Of a stretch of DNA of 64,000 nucleotides, positions 523 to 60,015 are shown piece after piece. A program made the translations under genes and the position numbers. The first letter of the stretch is position 1. Each line of letters opens with the position of its first letter. The notes below the pieces were generated by a model. The model worked only from the letters and a program-made list of their open reading frames with translations, made no database searches and was not told the origin of the DNA. This stretch comes from Chimonanthus salicifolius (Eukaryota > Streptophyta > Magnoliopsida > Laurales > Calycanthaceae): contig CM023542.1 in assembly GCA_013350335.1 (NCBI GenBank), forward strand, positions 2,294,001 to 2,358,000. Direction: 5' to 3'.

Positions 523-705
523 CAGGGGTTGAAAAATGGAAACGGCCGATATATCTGTCGTTATGATATATCGGCCGATATTAGGTATTAATCGATTTAT
601 CGGCGGCAAAATTATTGTTTTTATTTATTTTTTTACTTAAAATTACTGATATCAGCGATATATCGACCGATGTCTACTGAATATCGGCTGATATTAAAAC
701 CCATG
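523..705. mobile_element. hAT-type MITE, ATCGGCCGATAT family
   Basis: The element starts CAGGGGTTGAAA and ends TTAAAACCCATG. It is flanked by ggacaaat (515-522) and ggacaaac (706-713), an 8-bp target-site duplication with one mismatch. The interior carries several copies of the palindrome ATATCGGCCGATAT with decay. No coding capacity. CAGGG ends plus an 8-bp duplication are hAT superfamily hallmarks; assignment is by ends only. Confidence 0.7.
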
Positions 706-824: not shown

Positions 825-1029
825 CAGGGGTAATAATTTCAACCACACATAGATGATCTCGGTCAATATGACCGATATATTGATGAGCTATATCGACTGA
901 TATCATTAAATATCGCTGCTTTTGTTTTAAAAAAAAAAAATTGATTTCTTAGTGGACTCGACCGATATTGACCGATATTTCTAATTTTAACTTTTTGTCC
1001 ACGACCGATACTCGAGATTTAAACTCCTG
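825..1029. mobile_element. hAT-type MITE, ATCGGCCGATAT family (decayed)
   Basis: Starts CAGGGGTAATAA and ends TTTAAACTCCTG. Flanks gtctagat and tcctggat agree at 5 of 8 positions, so the target-site duplication is weak. The interior has repeated ACCGATAT/ATATCGGT half-palindromes and a poly-A tract. Confidence 0.55.
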
Positions 1030-4202: not shown

Positions 4203-4451
4203 CGGGGTTTGAAAAATCGAGATGTTGCCCGAATTTTCGTATCGGCTGAGATTTTTTTTTCTCTCTTCAATTTTTTTTTTTTTGAGAAATCTCGGTGGCT
4301 TTTTTTTTTAAAATCATTTTTAAAAAAATAAAAGGCTGTTTTTAAAAAAAAATAAAAATATTGACCAATATGGGCTGGACCCACAACAGATATTTTTTTT
4401 TTTAAAAAAAGAAAAAATCGGCCGACGTATCAGCCGAGATTTATACTCCCG
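4203..4451. mobile_element. hAT-type MITE, ATCGGCCGATAT family
   Basis: Flanked by a perfect 8-bp target-site duplication, agtctcca (4195-4202 and 4452-4459). Ends are CGGGGTTTGAAA and TTTATACTCCCG, so the first base or two of the usual CAGGGG end differ. The interior contains long T/A runs and gtatcggctgag / cggccgacgtatcagccgag palindromic segments. Confidence 0.75.
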
Positions 4452-12949: not shown

Positions 12950-13095
12950 CAGGGATTTAAATTTCAAATATCGGGCAATAATTTAGTCAAGAAATTTCTC
13001 TCTCTTATTTTTTTTTTTAAGCCACCTTTCTCGACCAATATCAACGATATATATGGCCTATGTATATCGAATATCGACCGAGATTTATTTCCTTG
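12950..13095. mobile_element. hAT-type MITE, ATCGGCCGATAT family
   Basis: Opens CAGGGATTTAAATTTC and closes ATTTATTTCCTTG. Flanks are attctatt (12942-12949) and attctatc (13096-13103), 7 of 8 matching. The interior has gaccaatatcaacgatat and tcgaatatcgaccgag half-palindromes. Its right end is the exact place where block Z begins here and where the B1 copy instead jumps to block W. Confidence 0.7.
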
Positions 13096-16598: not shown

Positions 16599-16599
16599 G

Positions 16600-18170: not shown

Positions 18171-18253
18171 ACCGAAACTATACTTGTAAATTTCTAACCA
18201 GGTCAACTATAAACGCATGCTTTTCTAATTTTAGGTTTCACATAGTTGGCTCG

Positions 18254-32498: not shown

Positions 32499-32556
32499 TA
32501 GGGTCCGAAATCTACGTATCGGCGGATATCTCATTTGGCCGAGATTTGGACCCCTA
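32499..32556. mobile_element. Minimal 58-bp hAT-type MITE, ATCGGCCGATAT family
   Basis: Ends TAGGGTCC and GGACCCCTA are inverted repeats. Flanks gatcaaag and aatcaaac match at 6 of 8 positions. Between them is little more than gtatcggcggatatctc and ggccgagat. It is the smallest recognisable member in the window. Confidence 0.55.
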
Positions 32557-33599: not shown

Positions 33600-34505
33600 T
33601 GATGCAACGGGTGTAATTGGATTTGAGGGTTTTGGGTGATGACTCGGCTAAGTTAATAAATAATGGGCATTCAATGATATTTAGATGGATTAATTGGGTC
33701 AATGATAGCCAAATGGCAGTTTGGTAATTAAGAAAGGGAAGACTAATGGATATTGGTTTTACTTTGGTGGATTGAGTGAAACTTTGGTAAATGGGAAAGA
33801 GGGTAGGTGGTGTCTTCTTGGGTAGTAGAAAAGGTAAAGTGGAGAGAGGGGGTATGGAGATAGTACCGTCGGGAACTTGGAAGGTATTTGTGTTTCTTCT
33901 TCTTTGTATCTCTCAGGTGTCCGATGCTCAGTGTGGCCGATTGGATCTTGAATTGAGATGTGGCTCGGACGATCAAGAGGCTGCAACGCGAGAGCAGATC
34001 TGGGACTGGCTCTGTTGGTGTGACAACAATGTCTCTGTTGGGTATACCAACAGAGGATGGACACGGCAGCAGGGGAGGTTCTAGCTGTCGCCTGAGAGGA
34101 CACAATTGATGAAGCGATATTGGATCTGAGAGACAAGGAAGACTTGTCTACAGCAGAAACAACAATACTTCGAAGATAACCGCCTGTAAAAGGTGAAAGA
34201 AGAGTTAGAAGAGAAGGAAGAACAAGAAGAGCAATTAGAGAGAGAATAGAAAAGGATCTAGGTTTTCGATTTCTTTTGTTTATCCTTCCATCGTGGCCAA
34301 GGTAACCCTTTTATAGGAGGCTATAGTCGGCTCGTCAGTGGGATTGCATCTACCAATCTTGGTAGTTTCCATGTAGGAAACGATTTTGCTGAGCTTGGAA
34401 TTTTCCTTTGCAACTCCGTAGGAGACGGGATTGGGAAGGAAAGCCATGAGTTGGCTAGGAGATGAAGACTCTTTCACCCTCATGGGTCCTACCCGTGCTA
34501 CATCA
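33600..34505 (-). repeat. 3' LTR of the gag-protease element
   Basis: 906 bp, TGATGCAACGGG ... GCTACATCA. Compared with the other LTR it shows many substitutions and small indels, so insertion was not very recent. Confidence 0.9.
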
Positions 34506-34636
34506 GTCTCTCTCGGTTGAAAAGAACTCGACATCGAGTTCGTATCCAAGGAATGCAATACAAGAGCACGGTCTTCTTTATTTTCACTTCCATCATTGAA
34601 AAAATGTTGCAACACATGATCTTGACTTTTCACACA

Positions 34637-36435
34637 TCACCTCTGGTTCGTGCGTGTGGGACGTCGCTCTTTGGGGTTATAAGCGGCTCGGTGATCAACT
34701 TGTCGTTTTGTATTGCGTTGTTGGCATCTAGATGCAATATGCCCCTTCCATTGACATGTGAAGCATGTGATATGCCTCATATAGCTCGAACTTTGCCTTT
34801 TGGCACCACAAACTGGAAGGAATGAATCATTCTTCTTAGGTGTCAGCAATAGGCCATGCATAGGAGTGAGAGTAATTTTCCTTCCATGCTTATAGAAAGT
34901 ATAGGTGTTGGCATGACCCTTGTGGGTGCTGTCGACGTCTGATTGCCAGAGACGCCCAAGAATTATATAGCACACATCCATGTCGACAACGTCAAAAAGA
35001 ATGTGATCCTTGTAGGTGTGTCCAATAGAGAAGGAGAAATAACATTGTCTCGTTACATGTGTCTCTCCCACGGGTTTGATCCATCCAACTGAATGAGGAA
35101 AAGGGTGTGGGTGTGTAGTCAAACCCAACTTTTCAACCAACTTCTGAGAAACAATGTTTTTAATGCATCCACTATCAATGATGAGATCACACACCTTTTG
35201 GTTGACAATGCACCGAGTCTTAAAAACGTTAGGATGTTGCAATGGAGGGCTCTGTTTGACGTGTTAAGCAATCTACGAATCATTAGAGTGGATCCTTCAT
35301 CTCCATAGTCAACATAATCATCATCATCATCTGCAACATATTCACATTGCCCTTCTATATACTCATGTTCCACTCCTTTACCATTGTTGGTGGCAATGGC
35401 AACAAGTTGACGAGTAGGGCACATATTTGAGCGGTGACCTGGTTGACCATAACGAAAACACTTTCCTAGCATAGGTTAAGCATAGGGGTTATTTCTGGTA
35501 GGCTCCTTGTTCTCATTGATCTTTAGTGGGCTACCTAGATTACGTGCAGGTGCAGGTCGAGGGAGTATACCCTGTTGATGAGGTTGCACCTGTGTTGGTG
35601 TGGTAGCTGAAGTGGCCGATGGAGGAGTAGATCTACTTACTATTGTATTCCTTCCTCCTGGGCGGTCTAATTCTTCTTCAACTCTTTCGGCCATCAACAC
35701 TGTGTCACTCAAGGCGCGAATCGGTTGGAACCCAACGCCAAGGCGGATTGTTGTGCGAAGACCTTTTAAGAACCATGAGATTTGTTGAGGTTCACTCTTG
35801 ACCAAATTGTTTCGGGCAGATAGGCGATAGAATTCAGTTATATAGTCTTTAACCGAACGGTTTCCTTGTCGATATTCTTAGCACTGCTCGAACAAACGTT
35901 GCTCATAGTCTGCTGGAAAGAAGCATGCTTGGAACAACTTTTTCATTCGCGGCCAAGACTTGACAAGAGGCTTATTTCGTTGCCCACGCGTGGTCTGAAG
36001 GTCTTCCCACCATGTAAAAGCTCCACCTTTGAGCCTGTAGGTGACGAACTTAACCTTCTTGGAGTCTTCAATCTCCATGCAATTAAAGAATGCCTCAACT
36101 TCTGAGAGCCAGTCGAGGAACTCTTCAATTTTGACTTGTCCGTTGAAAGACAGTAAGTCCACCTTCATGCGGTAATCTCGACCCGGCAAGGCATTATTAG
36201 GTTTGCATGTCTCATGCGGTTGTAGGACAGTCTCCACCTCTTCATCGCTGGAGGAATCATAAACAGATGGATTGTGAGGTGTGTGGGATCTCCTGCCTTG
36301 ATTACGGTGAGCGTCATTCCTAAGTGGAGTTTGTTGATCACAAAGAAGATCAAGCTTTGCAGACATATTCATCATTATTGTTCGCAACTCCTCGAATGTG
36401 GTTTGAATGACGAACTGATTACCGTCTGAAGCCAT
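34637..36435 (-). pseudogene. Gag-protease reading frame, interrupted
   Basis: Gag opens with MASDGNQF at 36435 and includes a Ty3-type capsid core (FLDWLSEVEAFF, GGAFTWWEDL) before an in-frame TAA at 35878-35880. The same frame continues to a second TAA at 35476-35478, then into a zinc knuckle whose second Cys is Tyr (CFRYGQPGHRSNMC). After a frame change near 35230 comes an aspartic protease (LIIDSGCIKNIVS, with DSG; later YIILGRLWQSDVD). A second, intact knuckle CFTCQWKGHIASRC follows near 34755. The last frame closes at 34637. The copy is dead as sequenced. Confidence 0.88.
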
Positions 36436-36511
36436 GGATTTTTTTTTTTTCAAAATGTCGAGGAAAGTCTCACCCGATGAGAATCGGTGAGATCTGGCTC
36501 TGAATACCAAT

Positions 36512-37418
36512 TGATGCAGTGGGTATAATCAGATTTGAGGGTTTTGGGTGATGACTCGGCTAAGTCAATAAATAATGGGCATTCAATGATATTTAAATAG
36601 ATTAATTGGGTCAATGATAGTCAAATGGCAGTTTGGTAATTAAGAAAGGGAAGACTAATGGATATTGGTTTTACTTTGGTGGATTTAGTGGAACTTTGGT
36701 AAATGGGAACGAGGGTAGGTGGTGTCTTCTTGGGTAGTGGAAAAGGTAAAGTGGAGAGAGAGGGGGTAAGGAGAGAGTACCGTTGGGAACTTGGAAGGTA
36801 CTTGTGTTTCTTCTTCGTATATGTCGAATGTCCGATGGCCAGTGTGGCCGATTGTATCTTGAATGGAGGTGTGGCCCAGATGATCAAGAGGCTGCAACGC
36901 GAGAGCAGATCTGGGACCGGCTCTGCTGGTGTGGCAGCAATGTCTCTGTTGGGTATACCAACAGAGGATGGACACGGCAACATGGGAGGTTCTGGCCGTC
37001 GCCTGAGAGGACGCAGTTGTTGAAGCGATATTGGATCTGAGAGACGAGGAAGACTTGTCTACAGCAGAAACAACAATACTCCGAAGATAACCACCTGTAA
37101 AAGGTGAAAGAAGAGAAAAAAGAGCAAGAAGAGCAAACAGAGAGAGAATAGAGAATGATATGGGTTTTCGATTTCTTTTGTATATCCTGCCATCGTGGCC
37201 AAGGTAACCCTTTTATAGGAGATTATAGTCGGCTCGTTAGTGGGATTGCATCAACCGATCTTGGTAGTTTCCATGTAGGAAACGATTTTGTTGAGCTTGG
37301 GATTTTCCCTTGCAAAAGTTTCTCCACTCCGTAGGAGACGGGATCGAGAAGGAAAGCCACGAGTCGGCTGGGAGAGGAAGACTCTTTTACCCACATGGGT
37401 CCTACCCGTGCTACATCA
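36512..37418 (-). repeat. 5' LTR of the gag-protease element
   Basis: 907 bp, TGATGCAGTGGG ... GCTACATCA, followed directly by the target duplication ATATG. Confidence 0.9.
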
Positions 37419-37995: not shown

Positions 37996-38078
37996 CAGGG
38001 GTAATAATAAAACCTTGATATCGTATCGGTCGAGATTACTTTTATCGGTGATATGTATGGACGATATTTATAGCCCTC
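37996..38078. mobile_element. 83-bp hAT-type MITE, ATCGGCCGATAT family
   Basis: Starts CAGGGGTAATAAT and ends TTTATAGCCCTC. The 8-bp target-site duplication gttaaaat is perfect (37988-37995 and 38079-38086). The interior has gatatcgtatcggtcgagat and tatcggtgatatgt. Confidence 0.75.
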
Positions 38079-41890: not shown

Positions 41891-42179
41891 CAGGGGTTTA
41901 AATATCGGCCGATACGTATCGTATCGGCCGATATATATCGGTTTTGGCCTTGTGAATATCGGCCGATATGTATCGTATCGGCCGATATTCACAATATCGG
42001 CCTTGATATCGGCCGTATTATATCGGGCCCGATATCAAAATATCGCCGATATCGGCCGATATTTACAAAAAAACAAGAAGAAGAGAAACTTATCGGCCGA
42101 TATATCGGCCGATAGCGATATATCGGTCGACATATCGTATCGGCCGATATATCGGCCGATACCGATTTTTAAACCCCTG
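41891..42179. mobile_element. hAT-type MITE packed with ATCGGCCGATAT palindromes (best copy)
   Basis: 289 bp between perfect 8-bp target duplications agcttagt (41883-41890 and 42180-42187). Ends CAGGGGTTTAAA and TTTTTAAACCCCTG are inverted repeats. More than ten copies of the palindrome (a)tatcggccgata(t) fill the interior, with variants gatatcgg, tatcgggccc and gtatcgtatcgg. There is no transposase, so mobilisation would need a hAT transposase in trans. Confidence 0.85.
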
Positions 42180-42675
42180 AGCTTAGTTACCCCGTGTGAA
42201 GATGTATTCTTTGGGGCTCAGGTATAATTCAGTTCCTCAGACCTATTTGAAAAATGGAATTTAGAAAATGAAATCTCATTTCTTCTATTAAAGTATTAAG
42301 GTTGGTGAGTAGGGTTATACATGGCTCAAGTTGGGTGACAGAGGCTTTTTCAAGTGCAGGCTTTTTGGTTATTGCTCTTTGCTTTCAGACACAAAACCAG
42401 CACAGGACGAGCCCATTTGCAACATGCTAGGCTGTTTGTGTCAATTATGTTGCTTCATTCTTATATAGTTGGGTCTTTAACCAAGAATATCTGTATCTGT
42501 ATCGATTTAACTATCTGGCCAAGAATAGGTAACCGGTCTAGTATATAGCCTAAACATGGGTCAAATCCGACTCAATTAGGGCTTGCTGGGCTGACAATCC
42601 TGTGAAAAGCCCAGGTCCATCCATGTTTAGCTTTAGGGATTTCTCTTTGTAAATCAGGAACAATTCACTTGCACT

Positions 42676-42861
42676 CAGGAGTAGAAATATCGCCCGAGAT
42701 ATCTCGTATCGGCTGAGATATCTCGGGTTCTGGTCGCCCCATATATCTCGGCCGATACGAGATATATCATCCGTACGAGCCAGATCTCGCCGATATCTGC
42801 TGAGATTTGACAAAAAAGAGAGAAAGAGAGAGAGAAATATCGGCCGATATTTCTACCCTTG
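42676..42861. mobile_element. hAT-type MITE with TCTCGGCCGAGA-type interior
   Basis: 186 bp between perfect 8-bp target duplications cttgcact (42668-42675 and 42862-42869). Ends CAGGAGTAGAAATATCG and CGATATTTCTACCCTTG are inverted repeats. The interior switches to gagatatctcg and atctcggccgatacgagat words, plus an (ag)n tract near 42816-42833. Confidence 0.85.
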
Positions 42862-44424: not shown

Positions 44425-44524
44425 NNNNNNNNNNNNNNNNNNNNNNNNNNNNNNNNNNNNNNNNNNNNNNNNNNNNNNNNNNNNNNNNNNNNNNNNNNNN
44501 NNNNNNNNNNNNNNNNNNNNNNNN
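44425..44524. other. Assembly gap, 100 Ns
   Basis: Exactly 100 Ns, a conventional placeholder for a gap of unknown size. Copy B1 of the segmental duplication begins at the next base, and an ATCGGCC-rich repeat ends at the base before, either of which could have stopped assembly. Confidence 0.99.
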
Positions 44525-44598
44525 ATTATTTTACTTTTATAAGTTTACAATTTATTGATACACGTATCACTTGCACCACCCAAGTTAAGAGGAACAAT

Positions 44599-44779
44599 CA
44601 GGGGTTGAAAAATGGAAACGCCGATATATCTGTCGTTATGTATATCGGCCGATATTAGGTATTAATCGATTTATCGGCGGCAAAATTATTGTTTTTATTT
44701 ATTTTTTTACTTAAAATTACTGATATCAGCGATATATCGACCGATGTCTACTGAATATCGGCTGATATTAAAACCCATG
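44599..44779. mobile_element. hAT-type MITE (B1 copy of 523-705)
   Basis: CAGGGGTTGAAA ... AAAACCCATG. Flanks are ggaacaat and ggacaaac. The left flank differs from copy A by a base shift. Confidence 0.68.
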
Positions 44780-44896
44780 GGACAAACCACCTCTCCATTT
44801 GATGAGATGGTTAGCCTTTATGAAATGTTGTCAATGCAGCAATACAATCCCTTATCCATCTCTCCACACATGAGATCCGCTTGATGTGGTCTAGAT

Positions 44897-45098
44897 CAGG
44901 GGTAATAATTTCAACCACACATAGATGATCTCGGTCAATATGACCGATATTGATGAGCTATATCGACTGATATCATTAAATATCGCTGCTTTTGTTTTAA
45001 AAAAAAAAATTGATTTCTTCGTGGACTCGACCGATATTGACCGATATTTCTAATTTTAACTTTTTGTCCACGACCGATACTCGAGATTTAAACTCCTG
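44897..45098. mobile_element. hAT-type MITE (B1 copy of 825-1029)
   Basis: Same ends as the A copy, with two short deletions and one substitution in the interior. Confidence 0.55.
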
Positions 45099-45891
45099 TC
45101 CTGGATCACTTTGTAAGATTGATGAGGTGTACTAGTGTTACTTAGGGCCAATAAGTGGGCATATTCTGAGGTACATTGAGGTGGCTGAAAATTTATTGAT
45201 GGTGTTGTATGATGAGGTCCCAATTTAGTAGGTTGAAACTTTGCATTGAATCAATGTCGAGAAGTGAAAAAAAGGAAGCCTAGCCACCTCTGGTCACGGT
45301 GAACGTGGTGGCCCGTCGGTGGGTGGGTGGCGTGAATATACTTAAAAGACGGGGATTAATACTAAATTGGATAGTCCGGTCAATCAGCTTTGAATGAAAG
45401 AGGCAAAAGAAAAAGAAAACTTTGGCAAAACTTTTGTCGCTCCCCTTTCAAGAATACTAGATCGGACCATCAATCACTTAATTCTCTTTGTGGTGGGGTA
45501 ACATTTAATGGTATGATTTATAGAGAGCAAGTCCTAATAAAAAACTTAGAGCTACTCGACACGGAATGTCATAAATATTGACGATATTTACAAATCTATC
45601 ATATTTTTATCAGAAAAATATCATTAACGTGCATTTATCGACACGGTAGTAAATTCCCAGTAAAATTATATTAAAAACATGATAAACGGTAATATTGCGA
45701 TAATATCCCAATAAATTCTTAGTAAATTTCTAATATTTTTATTTATTATATTTTTCATAAATTTTTTCTATTAATTTTCTATTAAAAATATGATAATTTA
45801 AAAATACCCCATTATTATCGATTACCTTTAATATCCTGAGAACATATTTGTTAAAATACTTTATTTTGAGCAAGTACAAGCCATTATATTT
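45099..45891. other. Non-coding, no feature recognised
   Basis: B1 counterpart of 1030-1824. A 63-codon frame opened here by small indels (45390-45581) is a chance product: the A copy does not keep it. Confidence 0.4.
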
Positions 45892-46033
45892 CTGAACATC
45901 CTTTTAAAATGGGATCAACCTAATAAATTTTGTTCTGAACATCCTTTTAAAATGGGATCAACCTAATAAATTTTGTTCTCAACATCCTTTTAAAATGGGA
46001 TCAACCTAATAAATTTTGTTCTGAACATCCTTT
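45892..46033. repeat. Tandem repeat, 43-bp unit (B1 copy)
   Basis: Same 3.3 units as 1825-1966 with no change of copy number. Confidence 0.9.
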
Positions 46034-46340
46034 ATTTTCAGCAACTACAAGCCATCATATTCCTTTAAGGCTGTAAATATCGATTAAATTTTGTTCTAAT
46101 AAATATTGATTATATAAAATAAATTAATTACTGAAATGAAATTTAGTTCTTCTTAATTCCTTTTAAGGCGGTAATTGTCCAGATTCTCTCAGGAAGGTAA
46201 GGAATTCAAAGGATTTCTGGTTTTTTTTTCTTCTAAAAATTATAAAAATCCTAGAAAGTGAGACTTAGAAAAATCTTTTGTTCAGCACAATTAGGCCACT
46301 CATTCTAACATGGGCAAACTAGGTCAAGAGACAAAGGATA

Positions 46341-46488
46341 GAGTAAAATTCCCATTTTACTTCTACAAGTGTACCACTCATCAAGTATCGGTGTACTAAT
46401 AACATGCTGCTGCATGTATATGTTCTGCATATCGATACACTGGTACTTGATGAGCGATACACTGGTAGAAATAAATAGGAATTTTACC
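46341..46488. mobile_element. Foldback MITE (B1 copy of 2274-2421)
   Basis: Identical arms and TA flanks. Confidence 0.6.
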
Positions 46489-46490
46489 TA

Positions 46491-48259
46491 TTCCGTGTCT
46501 CCTAACAAATTTTGTCTGTACTAAGATAGGCGTCCGAACAATTATAAATCCCCTAAGCATTCAAGTTTCAATGCATGGAGTTAACACGGACTATTATTGC
46601 CAATTAATTTCTCCCAACTTCTTAATTAATAGACGCATGAAGTTAACATGGAATTTTTAATTAATTGAGATAGTACTATGTTTTTATTTATTGTAATGGT
46701 TAAAACTACTTTCTTAAATTTCTCTGAATTGATATTAATAATTGAATTTAATGCAGTACTTTTTGTGGAGTTGGACTCCAATGTTCATATAATTTACATT
46801 ATTTACAACTTCAACATTTGCAATTTAACTTCTTAATGGCTGATAATAAAACCCAATTGATGTTAGATTTTGTGGAGTCTGATTATCAGATATGTACTGT
46901 TGATTTAATTTTATAATTTTCGCATTGCACCGTTTGTAAATCTTAATCATGATAATATATAATGTCTTTTTTTTCGTAAGAATATGTTGTAGCAAAAACG
47001 GTAATGAGGGTAAGGATCATATTTTCTTTGATTTTTGACCTTTCAGTATTGTGAATCGGTATTGAACTCATAGATGTACTAAAAGTAAACTGCGTAAATC
47101 TCTCTATCGTAGTTTGATCCTGTATATTGATTTTTTTCCTTTCGTTGTTTTCGTACACAATTGTTGTTTTTGTATGACAGAAACATTTATTTCCTCTCAA
47201 CAGTCATACATTGGTGGCTATACATATTTTATGTTTGTAACATAAAATCCTAGTTCTGCCCCTGCCTACTGCATTAATTGAAGCATCATTATATGTTTCA
47301 TCCGCCAATTGATTCTTCAAAAATCATTCTTCTCAAATGTCCTATACTTAGAAAATTCCATCCCTCGTGCCCCCACAAGGTAAGGTTCCTATAAAAAAAA
47401 TTCATTTCCCCTTTAAGCTCTTTGATTCTTGTAATAACATATTTGAGAGTGTCTGTTTAATCAAATTTATAGTCTATTTTGGTTTGTTTCTCATTTTGGA
47501 TTAACGTGCACATGTTCGCGCACACACATGTAGAAAACCGTGGAAAATCTAACTCCGACGAGATTCATGGTGCCCATCCTAGTAATTTTTTTCACTTTCA
47601 CATTTGAAGTAAATACAAATGCAACTTGAAAATTCAACTCTAAGTCTGCATTTGGATTAGGATAAGAGAGAAAAAACAAAATTGACCCGTGTAACGAATC
47701 ATCAAAATAGAATGTTGGGTTAAAGAAGATTTAATCGGGTTTAACTGCGGTGATGCCATTGATATAAATATTATAAATTATATTTAATAATTAATTAAGT
47801 TTTAATTGATGAGTTGAAATAAGATTTTAAATCAAAAGATTATTGTTTAATATGTATCAGCAAAAATACTTTAATAAAATTTTAAATTATTTTACACAAG
47901 TGTTGTTTATAATTATTTATTGATTAATGATTTATACTGTCAATCTTATAATAGTTATCATGAAGATGAGTGAATTCATTATTCATTTTAAAACAAACAA
48001 ATTTAGTTATTCATAAAAAAAAAACTATTCAAAACTTAAAGTAGTAATTCATGGTGCAAAAATCATTATTTATTATAGAAACTAAATAAAATATGGTAAG
48101 AACCTTCACATGATATCTTTCATGGTTTTGAATACATTCCATGCACATCTCGTGCACAATAATTACCTAAAGCTGACACTATTGAATTTTGAGTTGTAAC
48201 GAGTTCATGAATAAAAGTTCAAAACAAGAGGCATGTGAATACTAGTTATCCATTGACTC
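46491..48259. other. Non-coding, no feature recognised
   Basis: B1 counterpart of 2424-4194. Only a few single-base length differences were seen. Confidence 0.4.
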
Positions 48260-48267
48260 AGTCTCCA

Positions 48268-48515
48268 CGGGGTTTGAAAAATCGAGATGTTGCCCGAATT
48301 TTCGTATCGGCTGAGATTTTTTTTTCTCTCTTCAATTTTTTTTTTTTTGAGAAATCTCGGTGGCTTTTTTTTTTAAAATCATTTTTAAAAAATAAAAGGC
48401 TGTTTTTAAAAAAAAATAAAAATATTGACCAATATGGGCTGGACCCACAACAGATATTTTTTTTTTTAAAAAAAGAAAAAATCGGCCGACGTATCAGCCG
48501 AGATTTATACTCCCG
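48268..48515. mobile_element. hAT-type MITE (B1 copy of 4203-4451)
   Basis: Perfect 8-bp duplication agtctcca at 48260-48267 and 48516-48523. Confidence 0.75.
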
Positions 48516-48523
48516 AGTCTCCA

Positions 48524-49408
48524 TTACATGGTAGGGCCGCATCTTCAGCAGATTGTGTTGGGCTTTAGGTATCTCTGAGCCCTGATCCAGTTTGCGACTA
48601 CATGCTCCAAATCAGTTATAAGCCCACTTTGGCCCAACTTGGTCAAATCCTACCTTGCCTCATTTGTATTTTCAATGGCCAGAATTGATTCTAGGTCTGA
48701 ACTGTATGTGTATTGAGACTTATCTGGGTTGGGGCTTTTCTTGGGCCTATGTTAGGGTTAGATTGGGCCTATAGAATAAATGTTATATTTATCTTATAAT
48801 ATTTGAGGAAATATGTAAGAAAAATTGGGCCTTACTTGGACTTTTTAATTAGATTGAGACAGCTTAGACCAAAAGCTGACCCAATTATACTAACTTATTA
48901 CATGACATTACCGTTTTTAACTAAATTATAAGTTGAATGAAATATATAATGTATATAATATAATTATTACTGTTATTATTATTGTAATCACTACTATTAT
49001 CATCACTGTTATCGTCATTATCATCTTGAATCAAGTTTAATCAATTTATAATCTACACTAACTTGATAACAGAAAGAATCCAATGATGAATCATTGTGGA
49101 AACACTTTTGTCGCACCAAACATTAGAGTTGGATATATGTTTCAACCACAAACGTCTATAATTGAACGTATAGACAACCATTGTAATCATTCTTTGCATC
49201 CGTTGAGTTTAGTTTAATTTCAAAGTGAAAAAGAATAGTCTTATTGTGTCTTTTGGCAGGTAAATTCTTTGTTTCTTTTAAATTTTAGTTTGACTTGTGT
49301 TGAATTAATTTATTTTATGCAAAGCAAATAAGGATCCACCACTGGCAATTAAATCCTTTTCTTTGTCACTGCTCTTTACGAATTGATGGATTCGTCGGAT
49401 TCTAAGTT
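48524..49408. other. Non-coding, no gene
   Basis: B1 counterpart of 4460-5344. Confidence 0.4.
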
Positions 49409-49481
49409 GGGACTGATGGGGCTCATACCTGCAGCTTCTGCCTTGATAGGGCAGTGCTCCGACCAATTGAACTATAATCAC
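49409..49481 (-). pseudogene. trnD-GUC: Plastid-derived trnD pseudogene (B1 copy)
   Basis: Same relic as 5345-5417. It differs at one place visible by eye (ttctgcctt here, ttctgtctt in A), where B1 keeps the plastid-like base. The anticodon is again ATC. Confidence 0.85.
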
Positions 49482-49503
49482 AGAAAGATCAAGTAGTGAC
49501 TAT

Positions 49504-49855
49504 TGTTGGGGTGCGAACAAGAGTTCCACATCGATTGTGAAAGGGAAAATTTAAAGACTAGTAAGAGATTGGGTCACTCGACCTATCAGACTAATCTTTT
49601 GGACTGGAAGTACAGTCCTAACAGTGGTATCAGAGCTAGGTCCCTAAGTCACAACATGTGAATTCAAAGATCCCTTAGTCGAATGAGATAGTTGGTGACG
49701 TTTTATTTGCGGGAGAGCCTCGTTTGAAGGGGTAATTGTTGGGGTGCGAAGTAGAGTCCAACATCGATCGTAAGAGGGAAAATCTAATGACTTATAAGAC
49801 ACCGAGTCACTCCATCTTTCAAACTTTCAGTTTTTTTTTGCCCAAATCCAGTTTC
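49504..49855 (+). mobile_element. TRIM (B1 copy of 5440-5790)
   Basis: The left LTR ends cctaaca here (cctaacc in A), with the primer-binding site TGGTATCAGAGCT at 49625. The second LTR starts at 49737 (TGTTGGGG). Confidence 0.8.
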
Positions 49856-50150
49856 TCTTGGTGCAAGAAACAACTGAGTGTGGCTTGTTCATCAACAGAA
49901 CATGAGTATCAACTTTTAGTGAACAACTTTTACGATCATATTATTGCAACAATATTAGCACAAATATATTGTTTCCAAACTGGTCTTTCATGCCAATCCC
50001 AAACACAAGGAAGTTGATTATTACTTTGTCGAGGAGAGTGGAGTTTAAATCAGGTAGAAGATACTTCCACAAAAAGTTTATCTGTTGCACCTTTTCAATT
50101 GATGAATGTCAAGCTTTCGATTCAACAAGTTTTCGTTAACTCTTGTGAGT
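49842..50150 (+). pseudogene. Ty1/copia RNase H relic (B1 copy)
   Basis: Same CKKQLSVACSSTEHEYQ region and downstream STKSLSV segment as in copy A. In B1 one frame runs from the TRIM LTR into it (49736-50017), which is fortuitous. Confidence 0.75.
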
Positions 50151-50835
50151 AGTACAACCATGATTATTGTTTTATCTAATACAAGTATTCATGCATTCTC
50201 CTCACACCGTAAATGAGAGAGTCTATTTCATTTATCAGTGCTTTCAAAGGGCTTTTCCAGTTATCCTCATGAAAGAATTTAGAAGTTTTTGAAGAGAATG
50301 TGAGAACATTGTATAAGTAGGATCGTACGAGAAAGACTTGTTCGCTGCCCCCAACAATCCAAGTCTTTTGTAAGTCCCTAAATCTCTCCTTTTACAACAA
50401 ATGTATAACTTGTTCGTTGCTGCAACAATTAAATAATCTCAATGTTGTTTGACTCTTAAATTACTCAATAATCATTCTCTAATATAAATGCATTTTGTTC
50501 TTTTGACCTTTGATTTAGGTACCATCAAAGGCTTACCACTCATTTCAATAACATGAATCATGATATCGGCAGTCATTATCAAATACCATCATTTGTCACA
50601 GCAGGGAAGATTACTTGATTTCCTCAACTCATATCCCAAAAGATGAGTAACCCTGTTTACCAAAAGTTCCTTAATACTTGTAATTCCTCATTCATTCAAT
50701 ATAAGCCCCTTCAAAATAGAAATCTAAAAAAAAACAAAAAAAAACCTTACTAACTTGTTAGTCAATTGGAACAGAGAGGAGAGTAATGTCAATGCACTTA
50801 CTAACTTCAGTCCCACTCTCACTTCTCTGATCAAT
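50151..50835. other. Intergenic/3' flank of WAK-type gene (B1)
   Basis: Counterpart of 6086-6769. No gene. Confidence 0.4.
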
Positions 50836-51738
50836 TCAGCCTAGAATAATCATCACAACCAGTGAGACGAGAAGGAAGATGATACTACCGAAAGGACTTG
50901 TTGAAATCCCCTTTGAAATGACCTTATCCTCTGCAAAACCAAAACATGTTAAAAACACATTAGAAAACAGAGAAAAAAGAAGAAGCAACAGCACTTGAAT
51001 CTACTCAAATATGGAAGTAAACAACTTACTGCACTCCTTTGGGTGACAAATGCACCTCAGCCCAATCCCACAGTTACCATTCTGCTTCGAACACTCGTCG
51101 CAAACATTGGGAACATGATCAGGAATCCCATAAGAGACTCTTGTCCCGAATTCAAAACCCTGAGCAGAAAGAGAAGATCTGTAAATTCTTCTGTAATGCG
51201 AACAGTTCAGACCTTTGGGATAAAAACCCACTTCCAATTTCTCATAGTCATCAAGAAACAAGCAAGAAAAGGGTTGTTCTTGAGCTCTGCAACCAAAGAA
51301 GCTGCTGCAGTTATGAGGAGCAGATGGCACTTGTTCTCCCTCCCTGTAATTGCAGTTGAATAGGAGAAGGGAGTTGGGTTGTGGAGGAGAGGGAAAACCA
51401 GCAGTAAGATGGGATGGGGATACGAAATGAGAAGAGGAAGAACAGGAAGAGTGAGAGATGGTGATTGTTTTCACTCTGTAATCTACGGAAGAGACGAGAA
51501 AGAGGCCTAGAGTGGTCCTGAAGTAGAGTTTCTGGGATTTGCAGAGGAGCATTTGATTTAGGAGAGAGGAAGATGGCCGTTGCTGGAGGGAGAAGGGGCT
51601 TTGGATTCTGAATTTTCCACAGAAACTTGTTTCATTAGCATATCTGGTTGTGGGTTGTGTTAAAGATGGAGAGAAGAAGAGAATTAAACAGAGGAGGGGA
51701 AGATAGATTTCAGATTTCCAGAGGGTTGGCATTGCCAT
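50836..51738 (-). CDS. Secreted WAK galacturonan-binding / WAK-associated domain protein (copy B)
   Basis: Exons 51738-51030 and 50930-50836 use the same splice junctions as copy A and again encode 267 residues with no stop or frameshift. Against copy A I count ten amino-acid changes: F23S, N33Y, I43F, Q54R, A68S, L118P, R134G, S138P, V147F and L250F. None removes a cysteine, and the signal peptide and terminal hydrophobic tail remain. N33Y changes the residue before the NET glycosylation sequon (34-37 region), and several others fall in the presumed wall-binding domain. Either both loci are active paralogues, or the two are alleles of one locus if the duplication is an assembly artefact. Domain and role as for copy A. 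Confidence 0.88.
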
Positions 51739-52049
51739 TGTTTCCTTTTGTTCTTCTTTCTGGCACGAAAAGGGTGTAGAAATTGAAATCTGCATTGCTT
51801 CTTATTTTTTGTTTTTTTATGGGCCCAATAATACATTTTTTTCCATGGAAAGGACTGAGGGAAATTACAAGCTGACAAACAAGAAAAGTTAAAGAAGAAT
51901 ATATTCTACAATTGAAAAAACAATCAATATCACTTTACTCTTCTGCGATAAGTATCACTTTAGGTAGAATATTTTATCTTGGTAGCTTTCGAAATTAAAT
52001 TGGGCTTGGAAGATGAACATACATAGGACATTTCTCTCCCACATTTAGT

Positions 52050-52710
52050 CTTGCCCCAGAACGGTCTATATACTAGTGTATGGCCCATGAATAGTCCATG
52101 TAATATTCACTGGCACAATAAAGTTTACATATTACTTTCTTCAGGCCCTAGTAATAGTTATTTGTTCATTTAAAGGACTTTGTTATAGGTCCAAAATATC
52201 TTCTAACAGGCTTCTAAAAATTATAGTAGCCACAGAAACAGGTTTTAACGGGCCTACAAATGATATTTACTGGCCTATCAACAATTATTGTAGCCCAAGA
52301 ATGACTCTGCATAGGATTTTACGATCCATGAGCAATTGTACAGACTCATTGATGATTTTACATGCGTAATAGCCCAATAGTATTTTTGCCTAAAAGTAAA
52401 ATTTTCAAGCCCATAGACAATGCTTAAATTATTATAAGGCCCAAAGAATGAATTTTTACAGGCCTGCCAACAATTATGATAGCTCAAGAATAGTTTAATA
52501 TAGGGCTTTAAGACCGATGAAAGAGTTTAACAGATCCATAGACGATTTTTACACAGCGAAAATAGTCCAGAAAACAACATTTTTTGCTCTGGGTAGTCAT
52601 TCTCAGGCCCATGAAAAATGCTAATGATGTTGGCAAGCCTAGAACAATATTTAGAAACATTTTCAGGCTTAAGGTAACTATTTTCTGGCCCTTCAATAGT
52701 TTTCAACATT
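52050..52710. repeat. Degenerate GGCCC-phased repeat (B1 copy)
   Basis: Counterpart of 7990-8660 with only point differences and short indels. Confidence 0.5.
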
Positions 52711-52734
52711 TTATGCATCCGTCTTAGGAAACAG

Positions 52735-52845
52735 GAGGTGTCAGGTTTGAGCCTCCATTGCCTCACTTGGTGTTTCTTAAAGGCAGTAGATATCACCTGT
52801 GGGAGTTTTACGCTGGGTTTTCACTTTTCTTCTCAATTTTTGTTG
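52735..52845 (+). mobile_element. SINE-like element, family S1 (B1 copy)
   Basis: Counterpart of 8668-8785 with tgtgggagttttacgctggg. Confidence 0.5.
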
Positions 52846-52867
52846 TCTCCTTTCTCAGTTATGTTTC

Positions 52868-54274
52868 TGTAATATGCCCCGTCCCGCTATGGGCGCGTTA
52901 TCTCTGAAATATCTCAAATCAACATAAAGAACGGATATCGGGTATATAATTTTTTTTTTTTTTGAAATGGGGTAATCCCATAAATCCAGCTAAAAACGAG
53001 CTAGAAACAAGAACGATCCAAAAATGGGCTCTAAAAGCTTTAGAAGGGATTCCAAAACAAATCAGAAGCAGCCCAAAACTGGGCCTGGAACGGGCCTGAA
53101 AGTGCTGGGCTGCTGGATTGGGCCTTGTTGCACTGAGTTGGGCTTAGAGCTGGGCCCACATCAGGTTAGGTCAGACTGTTTGGCTGAAACTGTAGTTGGG
53201 CCGAGCTAGCTAAAGAGATGGGCCGGGTACGAGCTGGACGAAAAGAACTAGGCCTGATTGCTGGGTTTGGCTCAGGAACCACATACTCAGTCCAATTGAG
53301 TCAGATGAGTTGCTCAACTCGACTCGACTCGGTTGGGTCAAGAAATTAGGGTTTCAAGAAAGAGTGGAGAGGAAAAAAAGAAGGAAACCAATGGTGGTGG
53401 CAGCGGCTGCTGAGATTAGGGTTTTGGATGGTTGTTGAGGGAGGGAAAATAGAGAATGAACTGAGATAAGAGAGAGGTGAGTGAGAGAAGAAAGAAAAGG
53501 AGGGAAAGAGATGAAGAGGAGGTGAGAGAAAGGAGGCCGAAATAAGTATAGAGAAGAGGAGGCAGCGGCGACACAAAGGGGGGATAGGATAGGGTTTTAA
53601 ATGGAGTGGGAAAGGAGGAAGGTGAAGAGGCGGCGGCGGGAAAAGAGGTTAGGAGCGGCGGCAGCTGCAAAGGATTTAGGGTTTTTGGGCTTAGGAGGAG
53701 AGGGATTGGAGAGAAGAGAAAGGAGAGGATGAAGGCTAGGATTTTGCAAAAAAAGATAGTAAAGGAGAAAGAGAATATTTATATGAGTGACTTAGGGTTA
53801 AGGCTAGGATTTGGGTTTTCTATATAAACATATATATTTTTAAAAGAGTTTTAATTGCAAACAAAAAATAAAATAAAATAAAAATCAGAACTCACAATCT
53901 TTTGTATCATGATTTTATTTTATTTATTAATATTACTATTATTAATATATATTTTTTTAAACCTTGAATGTGTTAAATCAAATTTTCAAAAAGAAGAGCC
54001 TTTGTATTTTCAAGAAAAAGAATTGAAAATCTGAAAAACTCAAACGTCGAACGTTGGGACATAAAAAAAGTGTGATTTCCAAATATTTTTCTTTGGACAA
54101 AACGTATAATAATTCAGAGTTACAAAATTATCCTTCGAGTCTCCGTACTCGAAATCAAGTAAACTGTGGCCCGTCTAAGGACCCACACTCTCTCAATGCG
54201 CCAAAATCCCGTAACATTTCAGAGATCCAAAAGTCTCCTAAAAGAATCGAGAAATTTCAGAACGGGACATCACA
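52868..54274. mobile_element. Solo LTR, 1407 bp (B1 copy)
   Basis: Same ends and GTTTC duplication (52863-52867 and 54275-54279) as 8803-10230. About 20 bp shorter, mainly by loss inside a gggcctgggc tract and in poly-T and aaaat repeats. Confidence 0.85.
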
Positions 54275-54279
54275 GTTTC

Positions 54280-55033
54280 TCTCACTTGCAGTTCCTGCAA
54301 TGTCCTCAATCAGCTCTTTCCAACTTCTTAGATATATTACATCCTAGAAGTTTCTATCATGGGGATGGGACTAGTGTGACTTGGGTTAAAGGTTAATTTG
54401 AACTCGGTTGATCTAATCTAGAAAATAAGTAGATTAATTTGACCCATTTAAAATATGTTTGATACGTTATCCGAGCTAAAACAATGCTTTGTATAACTCA
54501 ACCATTTGAATTATCTAAATTACATACACATAAGCACGTACCCCTCTCTTTTTTTATCATTATATGATATTTTTTAGGTTTAACCTTTTTTACGATGACT
54601 ATGTTATAGAAGTGGTGATTTATTTTCATGAATGTCCATTTTCTTAAAACAATATTAATACAATATACAAATATTTCATTTTTGTGTGATGGTATGGTAT
54701 GATTTGGTTATCTCTATCGTGCATTCTTACACTCAAAAATAATAATATCGGTCAATACATATCATATTGACCGATATGTACGATATTGACATATTTATCA
54801 ATTTAAATTCTTCACAAACTAAGTCAATGTCCCAAGCACACAAAAGCTTATATGTCTTTCCCCTTTTATAATTACTTCTACTCCTATTAATATTTCCCAT
54901 GGGGAACTGATGTGTCTTCTGTGTCTAATTTTTCCTATTATAGCATGCACCTTTTTTTTTTTTTTTTTCATTTCTTATTTCCGCTGGCTGGACCCACAAC
55001 ACATCCTGACTCTGTCACAGATTCCCTTCCAAC
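54280..55033. other. Non-coding; carries the empty site of the A-specific insertion
   Basis: Flanks of the A insertion at 10301-10498 are continuous here around catcc at 54340-54344. The ATATCGGTCAATA hairpin near 54747-54780 is perfect in this copy. Confidence 0.6.
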
Positions 55034-55500
55034 TCTGTTACACAACTTTGACTTGGCTTCGCATCGTGTTTCACTTCTGTTCTGAAACAATTTCTTCATC
55101 CACAAACCTATTTGGTTTGGCTCTTCCCCATGTCTTGGCTTTGTGACATGTTTTAGTCTTCATCTCCCATGGTTGTGATTCACGATGGCACATATAATTG
55201 TCTAAGTGTCAAACTAATGATTAAGATATCTATTTTATAAAATGAGATCTTGAATTTGATTCACAGCAGCAGATTTCCTTTCAACTCTGTTACACAACTT
55301 TGACTTGCTTCGCAGCGTGGAGCAATTTCTTCATCCACAACTCTATGTGGTTTGACTCTTCCCCATGTCTTGGCTTTGTCACATGTTTTAGTCTTTAGCT
55401 TTTCTGGTTGTGATTCGCGACGGCACAGATGATTGTCTAAGTGCCAATTTAATGCTCAAGATGTCTCTTTATGAAGTAAGGTTTTGAATTTGATTCACAC
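55034..55500. repeat. Direct repeat of about 240 bp, two units (B1 copy)
   Basis: Counterpart of 11184-11655 with a 10-bp difference near the unit junction (cacagcagcagatttcc). Confidence 0.7.
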
Positions 55501-55599
55501 TCAATATCAACGTCCACTTCCTGTATACTTAATCGGTGTGGATTGAGAACTTTATACATATTCGTAAAATTAGTCTCACATCTAATATGAGGTGAATAT

Positions 55600-56472
55600 T
55601 GTTAGCGTTTAGCGGAAATAAACACAATAAACGAAATAAAAATAAGCACACCATAAGACAAGAATTTTACGTGGTCCGGCTCACTTGATCTACGTCCAGG
55701 GAGCGACAAAAAACTTCACTATATGAGAAAGAAATAAATACATGTACAAGATTAACTCCCTGAGTTAAAGCCCAAATCCGAAGTCCTGAACCCCTTGTAC
55801 ACCCATGTATACAACATACATCACCTCTCAGTCGGTGTTTGTATCTCTTTCCTACTCAGAAAAGTGAATCCAACTCCTGTCTCGCTCTTCTCTCCGCTTC
55901 CTACGTTCTACAAGCACATCCCGAAATGCTTTACGAACGCGAGGGTGCATTTCCTTTATAGTGTGTTCCCGTACACACTCATGTCTTGCTGCAATCACCC
56001 CACCTTCTCTACACATATGACGAAGGTGCCATCTCCACGTGTACCCACAAAGGCTGAAAGGCCCTTCACCATGCAGTAACCCTCTCGACTACATCTTAAT
56101 GCCGTTGTTGGTGTGATCTCAAACGGATTCCACACACTATAGCAGCACCCACGATGACATATATGTACTTGTTATTGTCCACTTCATATTGCCATGTAGA
56201 TCCCTATCTTCTCTCCTTTTTATTCTCTTGCGGTGTTTCCACTACTTTCTAGTCGACTCTTGGCAGCTTCCTAATTTGATCAAGGTCCGTTTTAAGCAGC
56301 TGTTTTTCTCTGGCTTCCAACCAGTCGTCTGTTTCTATCCATGTTGCACATGACTACAACTTTCACAAGTAATATTCTTGCTATAAATAGATAATCCCAT
56401 CTATATCCTCTTCTAAATTTTCTGAATGAAAATCTCGACTGTAGATGTGGTGAATCAAACTATATCCCAACA
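55600..56472. mobile_element. Solo LTR, 873 bp (B1 copy)
   Basis: Same ends as 11752-12624 and the same length. The insertion therefore predates the A/B1 split but postdates the split from block Y', which lacks it. Confidence 0.7.
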
Positions 56473-56790
56473 AAATATATGCATATTATAAAAAAAATAT
56501 CAATATTTACTTTTGGTATTTGCAAAGCAATATTATGAATTAGAAATGAAAAAACAAGCTTTGAGTATCGGACAAGAAAAGAGCCTTGGATAAAAGAATT
56601 TGAAATGATTTTTAACTGGATCTATAATATATGCAGCCTTTAGATAAGAACGGTTCCCAAAGCATTCATTCTCAATCAAGTGTTAATGTACTAGTTTTTT
56701 TTCTTTCATGATTCTAAGTTTCCTGCATGATTAAAGTTGAAAACTTGAAACCTTCCTCTTGTTTTCTATTTGTTTACCTTTCATTCTATT

Positions 56791-56937
56791 CAAGATTTAA
56801 ATTTTGGATATCGGCCAATAATTCGGTTGGAAAATTTCTCTTTCCTATTTTTTTTTTTAAACCACCTTTCTCTACCAATATCAATGAGATATATAGGCGA
56901 TATATATCGAATATCGACCGAGATTTATTTTCCTTAT
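56791..56937. mobile_element. hAT-type MITE at the rearrangement junction
   Basis: Left target flank attctatt (56783-56790) is kept. The interior has gatatcggccaata and tcgaatatcgaccgag. The right end ttttcctta runs straight into block W (tagtaacctatcagatgcac) where copy A has CCTTG and then block Z, so the right target duplication is lost. Confidence 0.65.
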
Positions 56938-57578
56938 AGTAACCTATCAGATGCACTTAATTATTTAAAATACATCATTCAATTTATTAAAAAGTCTCAT
57001 TACTGAAGGTCAAACCGTCAGAAGAAAAGTCTGACTAGCCTAATTCTAAGAAAAAAGTAACCTAGTTTTGCAAAAAATCAAGGTGGGATGTTTCTCCATT
57101 TTCAAATGTACCCATTTAGACCTCCTTCTAATGGGCAGAAAATTTGACAGTTCTCAATAGAAATTCGGAAGCTCACTCACTCATCAGAGCTCCACCAATG
57201 TGACTATTGATTTTACTAACAATCTCAGAGTCTCTACATTGCGCCTAAGGGCCTTGAGATTTCAAAGCATCTCAGAGTCGACAGTCAGTCACTCTCAAAT
57301 CTCAATTAACTAGAAGTGAACGACAATCCATTTTAAAAAATTAGTGCATAATTATTTAAAAAGACTACTAGCTGAGAATTGAGACCACTTAATAAACTGT
57401 ATTAAAAAAACATAATTATTATAATGAAATCAAATTTATTTCAATCACGCTCTGTCCTGCAGCAAAATACAATATCAAATCTACTAAAGTCTTCTTCTTC
57501 TTCTTCTTCTTTTGTTTTTGTATTTTCAGAAATGAAATCTGATGAATCCCACTACATGAGAAGCTTCTTGTTCTGGTA

Positions 57579-58822: not shown

Positions 58823-58872
58823 GCTTTCTTCTTCAGACTTGATTTTGTGGAGACAGAAGCGAGAGAGTTCCC

Positions 58873-58880
58873 TATTTATA
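58873..58880 (-). promoter_or_regulatory. TATA box of DABB gene copy B
   Basis: CTATAAATAGG in the same position as in copy A, 51 bp upstream of the ATG. Confidence 0.7.
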
Positions 58881-60015
58881 GAAGGGAATGGTTGGCTCAA
58901 TTGAATCACGATAATATCGTGACATTATTAAAATTTGCCATGATAAAACGGACAATCATTTATTCAATGATCTCACTTTTAATTGAAGGGATAACACAGC
59001 CCATTTTATTCTAAAAAACTCATTTCATCAATTTTCGAGTATATGAAAAGATGTGATATTATTGACATCATCTCTCAAAATCTCTCTTTTTTAATATTGG
59101 ACAGCAAAGATCGCGTAATATCAACTCTTTCAAAGACTCGTCATCGAAAGCAGCTTCCAATTGCTCATGTTATAAATTTGACTTTCATTTAACTATATTA
59201 TAAATTTAAATAAATACATATACCTCCTCATTAAGTCATCCAAATGTAGGCGCAAAGATAGAGCTGAAACTTGAGTCGGGTCAAGTTGGATTCTAATAAA
59301 TTTATTTCAATCTATGTTGAAATTTATTGAATCTAACTCGATCCGATCTAATTCGAGCCTGAGTGTTTATGTTTGCAGGTCAAATTGAGTCAGATTCAAT
59401 AAAATTATATCACATTTCATGTGGAATTGTGTGTATAGAATAATCTATATATTAAAAACCTTATGCACACCGGTCTACATGAGCCCATATCATTTATAAT
59501 AAAAAATTACTTGAAAGAATACACTCTCTCTTCCATTTTGGACAATTGATAGAGTTGAGCAAACTGCTAACGTCACAACTCACAACTCAATACGTGTTGA
59601 AATCCTAACAGCGTCCACGTGAAACACGATTTTACGAATTTCCGTGCACACCCAACGACAGTCCTTTGTCCTTAGGTTTTAAGTTTGATATTTTTGTTCT
59701 TTGGATTTTAACTTGGCCATTTTATTCAATAGAAATGATAGATATCTCATGTAAATTATTGATTGATATTTTACTGTTAATATTTTGCATATCGATCGAT
59801 ATTTATAATAGATATTAGATTTCATCCTTACAAGTCATCTACCACATAGAATCCTGTGATAAAAAATATTACCAAAACTATACTTGTAAATTTCGAATCA
59901 CGAATTAGGTCAACTATAAATATAGGCTTTTCTAATTTTTCCTGGTTCACATAGTTGGCTTGTTAAAAAATAATATTAAATTTAATTATAAATATAAACT
60001 CTAATTTAATTAATA

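What the first reader, a model, noticed from the sequence alone, without database searches (positions are those of the whole stretch)
41891..42179. A hAT MITE family whose body is made of the palindrome ATCGGCCGATAT
Seen: elements with CAGGGGT-like inverted ends and 8-bp target duplications (agcttagt, cttgcact, agtctcca and gttaaaat are perfect; others have one or more mismatches). Interiors are runs of a 12-14 bp self-complementary word, so each copy is a palindrome made of palindromes and could fold in many registers. Known: CAGGG ends and 8-bp duplications mark the hAT superfamily. Inferred: the element captured or grew an internal palindromic satellite that expands and contracts freely while the ends stay fixed. 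I do not recognise this family from any described set.
Basis: partly seen in the sequence, partly recalled or inferred. Interest (0 to 1): 0.78.

Follow-up and report, generated by a model that had tools for sequence, protein, structure and literature searches.

The report
Plant jumping DNA packed with palindromes
This is a young family of short plant-type jumping DNA pieces with fixed ends, whose body is mostly short mirror-image words that look like landing sites for the enzyme that moves them, rather than a captured satellite repeat.

Summary
The element at 41891-42179 has 12-bp CAGGGGTTTAAA ends, a perfect 8-bp duplication (AGCTTAGT) and nine exact TATCGGCCGATA words. In the host genome (852.6 Mb, unnamed; gene content looks plant), 39 word sites, all from contig C1, were fetched without looking at their ends. 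All 39 lie inside elements with CAGGGGT-like ends; 33 have 8/8 duplications, 5 have 7/8 and 1 has 6/8. Full-length matches at 96-98% occur on C1-C11, so this is a real, recently active hAT-type MITE family.

The satellite reading is not supported. Word layout is inherited: the first palindrome starts at position 13 from the left end in 32 of 39 copies and at 19 from the right in 38 of 39. The same palindrome abuts the ends of sister families. A related ~2-kb noncoding family carries the words near its ends, not in its middle.

Best reading: each word is a pair of inverted CGG half-sites for the BED finger of a hAT transposase, like the Hermes STR1-STR2 palindrome, and the MITE is little more than fused subterminal binding regions. 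Binding is inferred; no autonomous partner was found.

The parts
41891..42179 (+). MITE copy E1, 289 bp, the given finding
   Evidence: full-length matches at up to 98% elsewhere in the genome
41883..41890 (.). left target-site duplication AGCTTAGT
42180..42187 (.). right target-site duplication AGCTTAGT
41891..41902 (+). left terminal inverted repeat CAGGGGTTTAAA
42168..42179 (-). right terminal inverted repeat
41903..41914 (.). first palindrome TATCGGCCGATA, positions 13-24 from the left end; this position in 32 of 39 sampled copies
42150..42161 (.). first palindrome from the right end, positions 19-30; this position in 38 of 39 sampled copies
42162..42167 (.). near half-word (CCGATT) between right palindrome and right terminal repeat, making the two ends unlike
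   Evidence: end comparison
42091..42114 (.). double palindrome TATCGGCCGATATATCGGCCGATA, first of an exact pair 47 bp apart
42138..42161 (.). double palindrome, second of the pair; a 47-bp deletion in this stretch recurs in 7 of 38 aligned copies
42063..42089 (+). A-rich spacer, alike in E2
42676..42861 (+). cousin element E2, 186 bp, duplication CTTGCACT 8/8, words with ATCTCGG and ATCGGCC
523..705 (-). cousin element E3, 183 bp, duplication 7/8; 72% alike E1 in reverse over 142 aligned columns (duplicate copy at 44599-44779)
825..1029 (.). decayed cousin E4, duplication 5/8 (duplicate copy at 44897-45098)
4203..4451 (.). cousin E5, duplication AGTCTCCA 8/8, ends CGGGG (duplicate copy at 48268-48515)
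12950..13095 (.). decayed cousin E8, duplication 7/8 (duplicate copy at 56791-56935)
32499..32556 (.). short decayed cousin E7, duplication 6/8
37996..38078 (.). short cousin E6, duplication GTTAAAAT 8/8, right end weak

Best explanation
It is a copy of a young, non-autonomous hAT-type MITE family in a plant-like genome. Shown: fixed ends, 8-bp duplications, many near-identical copies on many contigs, a length too short for a transposase, and a fixed layout of palindromic words that starts immediately inside the terminal repeat. Inferred: each word TATCG-GC-CGATA is two inverted CGG half-sites that two BED zinc fingers of a hAT transposase bind together, as two BED domains do on the quasi-palindromic STR1-STR2 of the Hermes left end. 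The MITE arose as the two word-rich subterminal regions of a longer element joined with almost nothing between them. It is moved in trans by a transposase encoded elsewhere. Its internal words are therefore amplified binding sites, not a captured satellite; word-to-word deletions trim copies, and copies that keep the end-proximal sites keep moving.
For: Ends and duplications in 39 of 39 word-chosen loci, with controls: cross-paired flanks give 8/8 in 0 of 1482, and 2 of 300 random centres give a comparable end pair. Of the 30 best matches fetched, 27 have 8/8 duplications and 29 are 289 bp long; they are 20 distinct sequences, 19 of them 99% or more to the majority. Duplications favour T at position 2 and A at position 7 (0.60 each), the nTnnnnAn pattern stated for Hermes (PMC10368747, passage). 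Palindrome at fixed distance from each end. Of 100 listed ends from a search that excludes E1-type interiors, 74 have CCGATA with at most 1 mismatch at the free positions 19-24, completing the palindrome, over 14 kinds of dinucleotide at positions 8-9. A related ~2-kb noncoding element exists (one copy 1963 bp with 8/8 duplication CCACAGAC). Another copy of it (2046 bp) has 38 CGG/CCG in its first 500 bp, 6 in the next 300, 0 in the next 1000 and 15 in its last 246, and the left end of that copy is 95.8% identical over 311 columns to a 320-bp MITE lying beside it. 9 of 20 stretches downstream of coding hAT domains in this genome hold 10 or more CGG/CCG in 150 bp, against 8 of 172 controls. Literature: proteins with hAT BED and Hermes-type DNA-binding domains usually prefer CGG or CGC, and four hAT proteins' motifs match their own subterminal regions (PMC8097297, part 1 of 3 read); two BED domains bind a quasi-palindrome at the Hermes left end cooperatively (PMC10368747, passages).
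Against: No transposase gene with these ends was found: 22 of 150 scored hAT domains were looked at, 20 of them only over 1.6 kb downstream. Binding was not measured. Positions 13-18 were part of the search pattern, so only 19-24 were free, and sister families may share the palindrome by descent alone. Half-word sites are less variable than spacer sites (9 of 153 against 16 of 110, p 0.03), but the sample was picked by similarity to E1, so this is weak. The 20 downstream stretches include several of one hAT family, and 11 of the 20 have no such cluster. Two of the 30 best matches show no duplication at the called ends (L049, L069), and neither does the long copy in L100. In Hermes the right end is bound by no BED domains, whereas here both ends carry words. 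In PMC8097297 some hAT proteins gave AT-rich motifs, and the proteins tested belong to particular hAT subtypes.
Confidence: 0.68

Rival explanations
1. One reading: a hAT MITE that captured or grew a palindromic satellite, which expands and contracts by slippage with no role in transposition.
For: Deletions occur with excess flanking homology (10 of 26 distinct deletions with at least 6 bp against 8% null). The 39 sampled copies hold 3 to 15 words.
Against: Fixed phase at both ends and recurring spacings; the palindrome abuts the ends of sister families; CGG/CCG is confined to the subterminal parts of the long relative; tandem-repeat scanning of the window shows the word only inside E1 and E2. 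In 195 kb of flanks there were 11 word clusters outside the sampled elements, none with more than 5 words.
Confidence: 0.12
2. The words are kept for their ability to fold: a foldback element whose hairpin or cruciform DNA, or hairpin RNA, drives transposition, stalls replication or feeds small-RNA silencing.
For: Very strong predicted folding, z -16.8. Arms of 24 and 34 bp pair within the element.
Against: Any palindrome-rich sequence folds. The end-proximal position, the unlike phases of the two ends and the CGG core are not needed for folding. No small-RNA data were available.
Confidence: 0.15
3. Passive descent: the layout is simply that of one recent ancestor, and the words have no present function.
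For: Copies are so alike (19 of 20 distinct sequences at 99% or more to the majority) that fixed spacing within the family is expected from descent alone.
Against: The palindrome next to the ends recurs in sister families that differ at positions 8-9, and CGG-rich subterminal parts recur beside coding hATs with other ends.
Confidence: 0.2

Closest known systems
Hermes (Musca domestica hAT), left-end STR1-STR2
   Same: 8-bp duplications of pattern nTnnnnAn; a quasi-palindrome at positions 11-27 of the left end, bound by two BED domains; unlike left and right ends (PMC10368747, passages seen)
   Different: Animal element with a known transposase; other motif (AAGT/AAGC); right end bound by no BED domains; a few repeats per end, not a body made of them
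Maize Ac/Ds
   Same: Non-autonomous members share ends and often several subterminal repeats (AAACGG) that the transposase binds (PMC3260210, passages seen)
   Different: Other motif, not palindromic; 11-bp ends; known autonomous partner
hAT-derived CGG-binding proteins
   Same: BED plus Hermes-type DNA-binding domains usually preferring CGG or CGC; motifs of four hAT proteins lie in their own subterminal regions (PMC8097297, part 1 of 3)
   Different: Animal and fungal proteins in the part read; some prefer AT-rich motifs; no plant protein mentioned there
Brassica nigra hAT MITEs BniHAT-1/-2
   Same: High-copy plant hAT MITEs with 8-bp duplications and 25- and 12-bp ends (PMC7385995, passages seen)
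   Different: More than twice as long (673 and 666 bp) and 70 and 75% AT; no palindromic words mentioned in the passages seen

Membership tests
hAT superfamily (as a non-autonomous member) | 8-bp target-site duplication | tested here: met
   33 of 39 8/8, 5 of 39 7/8, 1 of 39 6/8 in the word-chosen sample; control
hAT superfamily (as a non-autonomous member) | short terminal inverted repeats of CAGGG type | tested here: met
   39 of 39 sampled loci have CAGGGGT-like ends, up to 2 of 7 mismatches allowed; 14 of 15 matching positions in E1. That CAGGG marks hAT is general knowledge
hAT superfamily (as a non-autonomous member) | target preference nTnnnnAn | tested here: met
   T2 and A7 at 0.60 each in 60 perfect duplications, symmetrised; one site is counted twice and one pair (L009, L010) is probably a copied insertion
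hAT superfamily (as a non-autonomous member) | mobilised by a hAT transposase encoded by an element with the same ends | tested here: inconclusive
   150 hAT domains scored of 1904 candidates; 22 looked at in part, none with these ends. Most further genome searches did not complete
MITE | short, non-coding, high copy, uniform length | tested here: met
   163-299 bp in 38 of 39, one compound locus of 570 bp; 1357 matches of the 23-mer on both strands; 2046 first-look candidates of which 40 were scored
satellite DNA | long head-to-tail arrays not bounded by transposon ends | tested here: not met
   No such array of the word in the window or at the 39 sampled sites; the rest of the genome was not examined for this
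Hermes-like paired BED binding | two BED domains bind the palindrome inside the end | not testable with these tools
   No transposase identified; needs a binding assay

The most novel reading that the evidence does not exclude
A MITE that has reduced itself to ends plus stacked dimeric transposase sites (148 of 289 bp in half-words), so that it out-competes longer relatives for transposase, including its own autonomous source: a binding-site sponge that would explain its recent burst and would fit the failure, so far, to find an intact partner with the same ends.
Probability: 0.25. Interest if true: 0.68.

Novelty: new variant of a known kind. Interest (0 to 1): 0.47.

Why it matters
How MITEs rise to high copy number while their autonomous partners stay rare is unsettled. 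This family is young, its copies are nearly identical, and the presumed binding site is a clean palindrome in a fixed phase at each end. The number, phase and symmetry of transposase sites can therefore be varied one by one in an excision assay. If the words are paired BED sites, Hermes-style end recognition by a palindrome just inside the end would extend to plants.

Tried and rejected
Looked for the autonomous partner in four ways. (1) hAT domains genome-wide: 150 scored of 1904 candidates. Two were fetched with about 4.6 kb each and twenty with 1.6 kb downstream only; none had CAGGGGTTTAAA-type ends, though ends further out would have been missed. (2) A left-end pattern excluding the MITE interior at eight positions gave 1 hit. 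I later saw that it passes only about a tenth of unrelated interiors, so it proves little. (3) A looser pattern gave 640 + 586 hits; the 100 listed look like sister families, and only one pair of them was followed to a longer element. (4) Probing inside left ends of one sister family: 13 of 19 carried the 2-kb noncoding interior at 420-720 bp; of 19 loci probed near 2 kb (those 13 and 6 new ones), 15 showed a right-end string there. One locus (L135) looked at first like a coding start; its translation in the frame I gave held stops and the protein was not searched further.

Rfam at gathering thresholds: no match in the window. The motif and end strings were not found in relevant papers: searched ATCGGCCGATAT, TATCGGCCGATA and three end strings; the 6 papers hit are on influenza and immunodeficiency viruses and were judged unrelated from the listing. 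The listings of the subject searches showed no title or abstract start describing a family of this make. Subscription journals and repeat databases were not searchable.

A resemblance of the half-word to the CGATA/TATCGATA sites of fly BEAF and DREF is recalled, not looked up; it was only a lead.

Full report
What is there. The window reads as plant-like DNA: it holds a receptor-like open frame with a weak GUB_WAK_bind match (25 bits, below the curated 29.4), a RING-finger open frame and pieces of a retrotransposon with gag and protease matches. At 41891-42179 lies a 289-bp element with ends CAGGGGTTTAAA/TTTAAACCCCTG, an exact 8-bp duplication AGCTTAGT, and nine exact copies of TATCGGCCGATA. 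The word is far beyond chance (36 matches with up to 1 mismatch against 0.11), and the strand folds strongly (z -16.8). Seven further insertions of the same general kind were delimited in the window; four of them are also present a second time because 449-18310 is duplicated at 44525-60019. These cousins have one exact word or none, so the title of the finding fits this element, not its neighbours.

Is it a family? The host assembly has 852.6 Mb; the 23-mer ATCGGCCGATATATCGGCCGATA occurs 681 + 676 times on the two strands, its reversed control 0 times. The first 100 listed rows collapse to 39 sites, all in the first 45 Mb of contig C1. If the rate holds, about 530 sites exist genome-wide (extrapolation). 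I fetched all 39 with 3 kb each, chosen by word and not by ends. All 39 lie in an element with CAGGGGT-like ends on both sides; duplications are 8/8 in 33, 7/8 in 5 and 6/8 in 1. Two of the 39 (L009, L010) carry the same duplication in opposite sense and are probably one insertion copied by a larger duplication. Controls: flanks paired across loci match 8/8 in 0 of 1482 and 7/8 in 3 of 1482; the same kind of end-finder at 300 random centres gives a comparable pair in 2. A DNA search with the element itself scored 40 of 2046 first-look candidates, and these 40 match over the whole length or nearly so, on C1 to C11. Of the 30 fetched, which include E1 itself, 29 are exactly 289 bp, 27 have 8/8 duplications, one 7/8, and two show none at the called ends (L049, L069); they are 20 distinct sequences, 19 of them 99% or more to the majority. 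Two of these 30 (L076, L077) are sites already in the first sample. The family is therefore real and recent. There is no excess of changes at CpG sites yet.

Is the body a satellite? No. The start of the first palindrome is at position 13 from the left end in 32 of 39 copies and at 19 from the right end in 38 of 39; pooled over both samples, spacings of 19, 35, 12, 41, 64 and 10 bp recur. The two ends differ consistently: the left has a palindrome directly after the 12-bp terminal repeat, the right has a near half-word and then a palindrome. Shorter copies come from deletions: among 38 aligned copies (L021 left out) a 10-bp deletion recurs in 8, a 47-bp one in 7, and two 12-bp ones in 5 and 4. 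10 of 26 distinct deletions have 6 bp or more of flanking homology against 8% of random ones; insertions of 6 bp or more number 2. So contraction between words happens, but on an inherited layout. In 195 kb of flanking DNA there were 11 further clusters of the exact word. One is E2 of the window (8/8), one is the end of a longer relative that later proved to have an 8/8 duplication (L018), six lie near the edge of the fetched stretch, and three (L014, L060, L066) are unclear. None had more than 5 words.

What the words belong to. A pattern for general left ends that excludes the E1 interior found 640 + 586 hits. Of the 100 listed, 47 have CCGATA exactly at the free positions 19-24 and 27 more with one mismatch, completing the palindrome in 74 of 100, across 14 kinds of dinucleotide at positions 8-9 (positions 13-18 were fixed by the pattern). 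Two facing ends 2.4 kb apart led to locus L100. It holds a 2046-bp noncoding element without a matching duplication and, beside it, a 320-bp MITE (duplication ATCACAGC 8/8) that matches the left end of the long one at 95.8% over 311 columns. A second long copy is 1963 bp with duplication CCACAGAC 8/8. In the L100 long element there are 38 CGG/CCG in the first 500 bp, 6 in the next 300, 0 in the next 1000 and 15 in the last 246. The interior is itself a young, abundant family: 40 of 40 scored matches at 99-100% over 361 bp, out of 537 candidates. The left ~180 bp of E1-type and long-type elements are 71-73% alike. The words thus behave as subterminal repeats of a hAT-like group, and the MITE looks like two subterminal regions joined together.

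How it probably works. hAT transposases bind subterminal repeats with an N-terminal BED finger. In Hermes the first two repeats form a quasi-palindrome at the left end and are bound together by two BED domains; the phase to the end matters, and the right end is bound by none (PMC10368747, passages). In Ac, several AAACGG repeats bind the transposase (PMC3260210, passages). Proteins with BED and Hermes-type domains of hAT origin usually prefer CGG or CGC, some prefer AT-rich motifs, and four hAT proteins' motifs match their own subterminal regions (PMC8097297, part 1 of 3). The word here is two inverted CGG half-sites with AT flanks, at the Hermes-like place. In the same genome, 9 of 20 stretches downstream of coding hAT domains show a cluster of 10 or more CGG/CCG per 150 bp against 8 of 172 controls (rank test p 0.011), some with TTATCGGGCC words. 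Three of these look like one family, so the test is not of 20 independent cases, and 11 of the 20 show no such cluster. The duplications show the nTnnnnAn preference. I therefore take the words as paired BED sites (inferred), and the MITE as mobilised in trans.

What is missing. The autonomous partner was not found. 22 of 150 scored hAT domains were inspected, most only on one side, and none had these ends. Binding, excision and small RNAs were not testable.

Verdict. Observation confirmed; the hAT MITE reading is supported; the satellite reading is not. It is a family that I found described in none of the searches made (listed under Tried and rejected), with an unusual, word-built body: a variant of a known kind, with a clear and testable mechanism.

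Noticed in passing
449-18310 and 44525-60019: Large duplication, 98.5% identical over the first 9.9 kb and about 83-96% in pieces further on, with more related pieces at 61271-64000. The second copy starts at a 100-N gap (44425-44524). Each copy holds a receptor-like open frame; the first has a weak GUB_WAK_bind match.
   Followed up: partly
33600-37418: Retrotransposon remnant: gag and aspartyl protease matches on the minus strand between two direct repeats of about 0.9 kb, 89.6% alike.
   Followed up: no
L100 48-2093; L018 with L101: Young, abundant ~2-kb noncoding hAT-like family with word-rich ends, a leader-like stretch and an AT-rich middle of tandem units of about 158 bp.
   Followed up: partly
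L090, L095, L098; also L096: Stretches downstream of coding hAT domains carry TTATCGGGCC-type words; in the first three they are followed by a different end-like sequence, GTTTACAGGCCTA.
   Followed up: partly
L021: 570-bp compound locus: a second copy of the MITE appears to be inserted in or beside the first.
   Followed up: no
21706-22239: RING-finger open reading frame on the minus strand.
   Followed up: no
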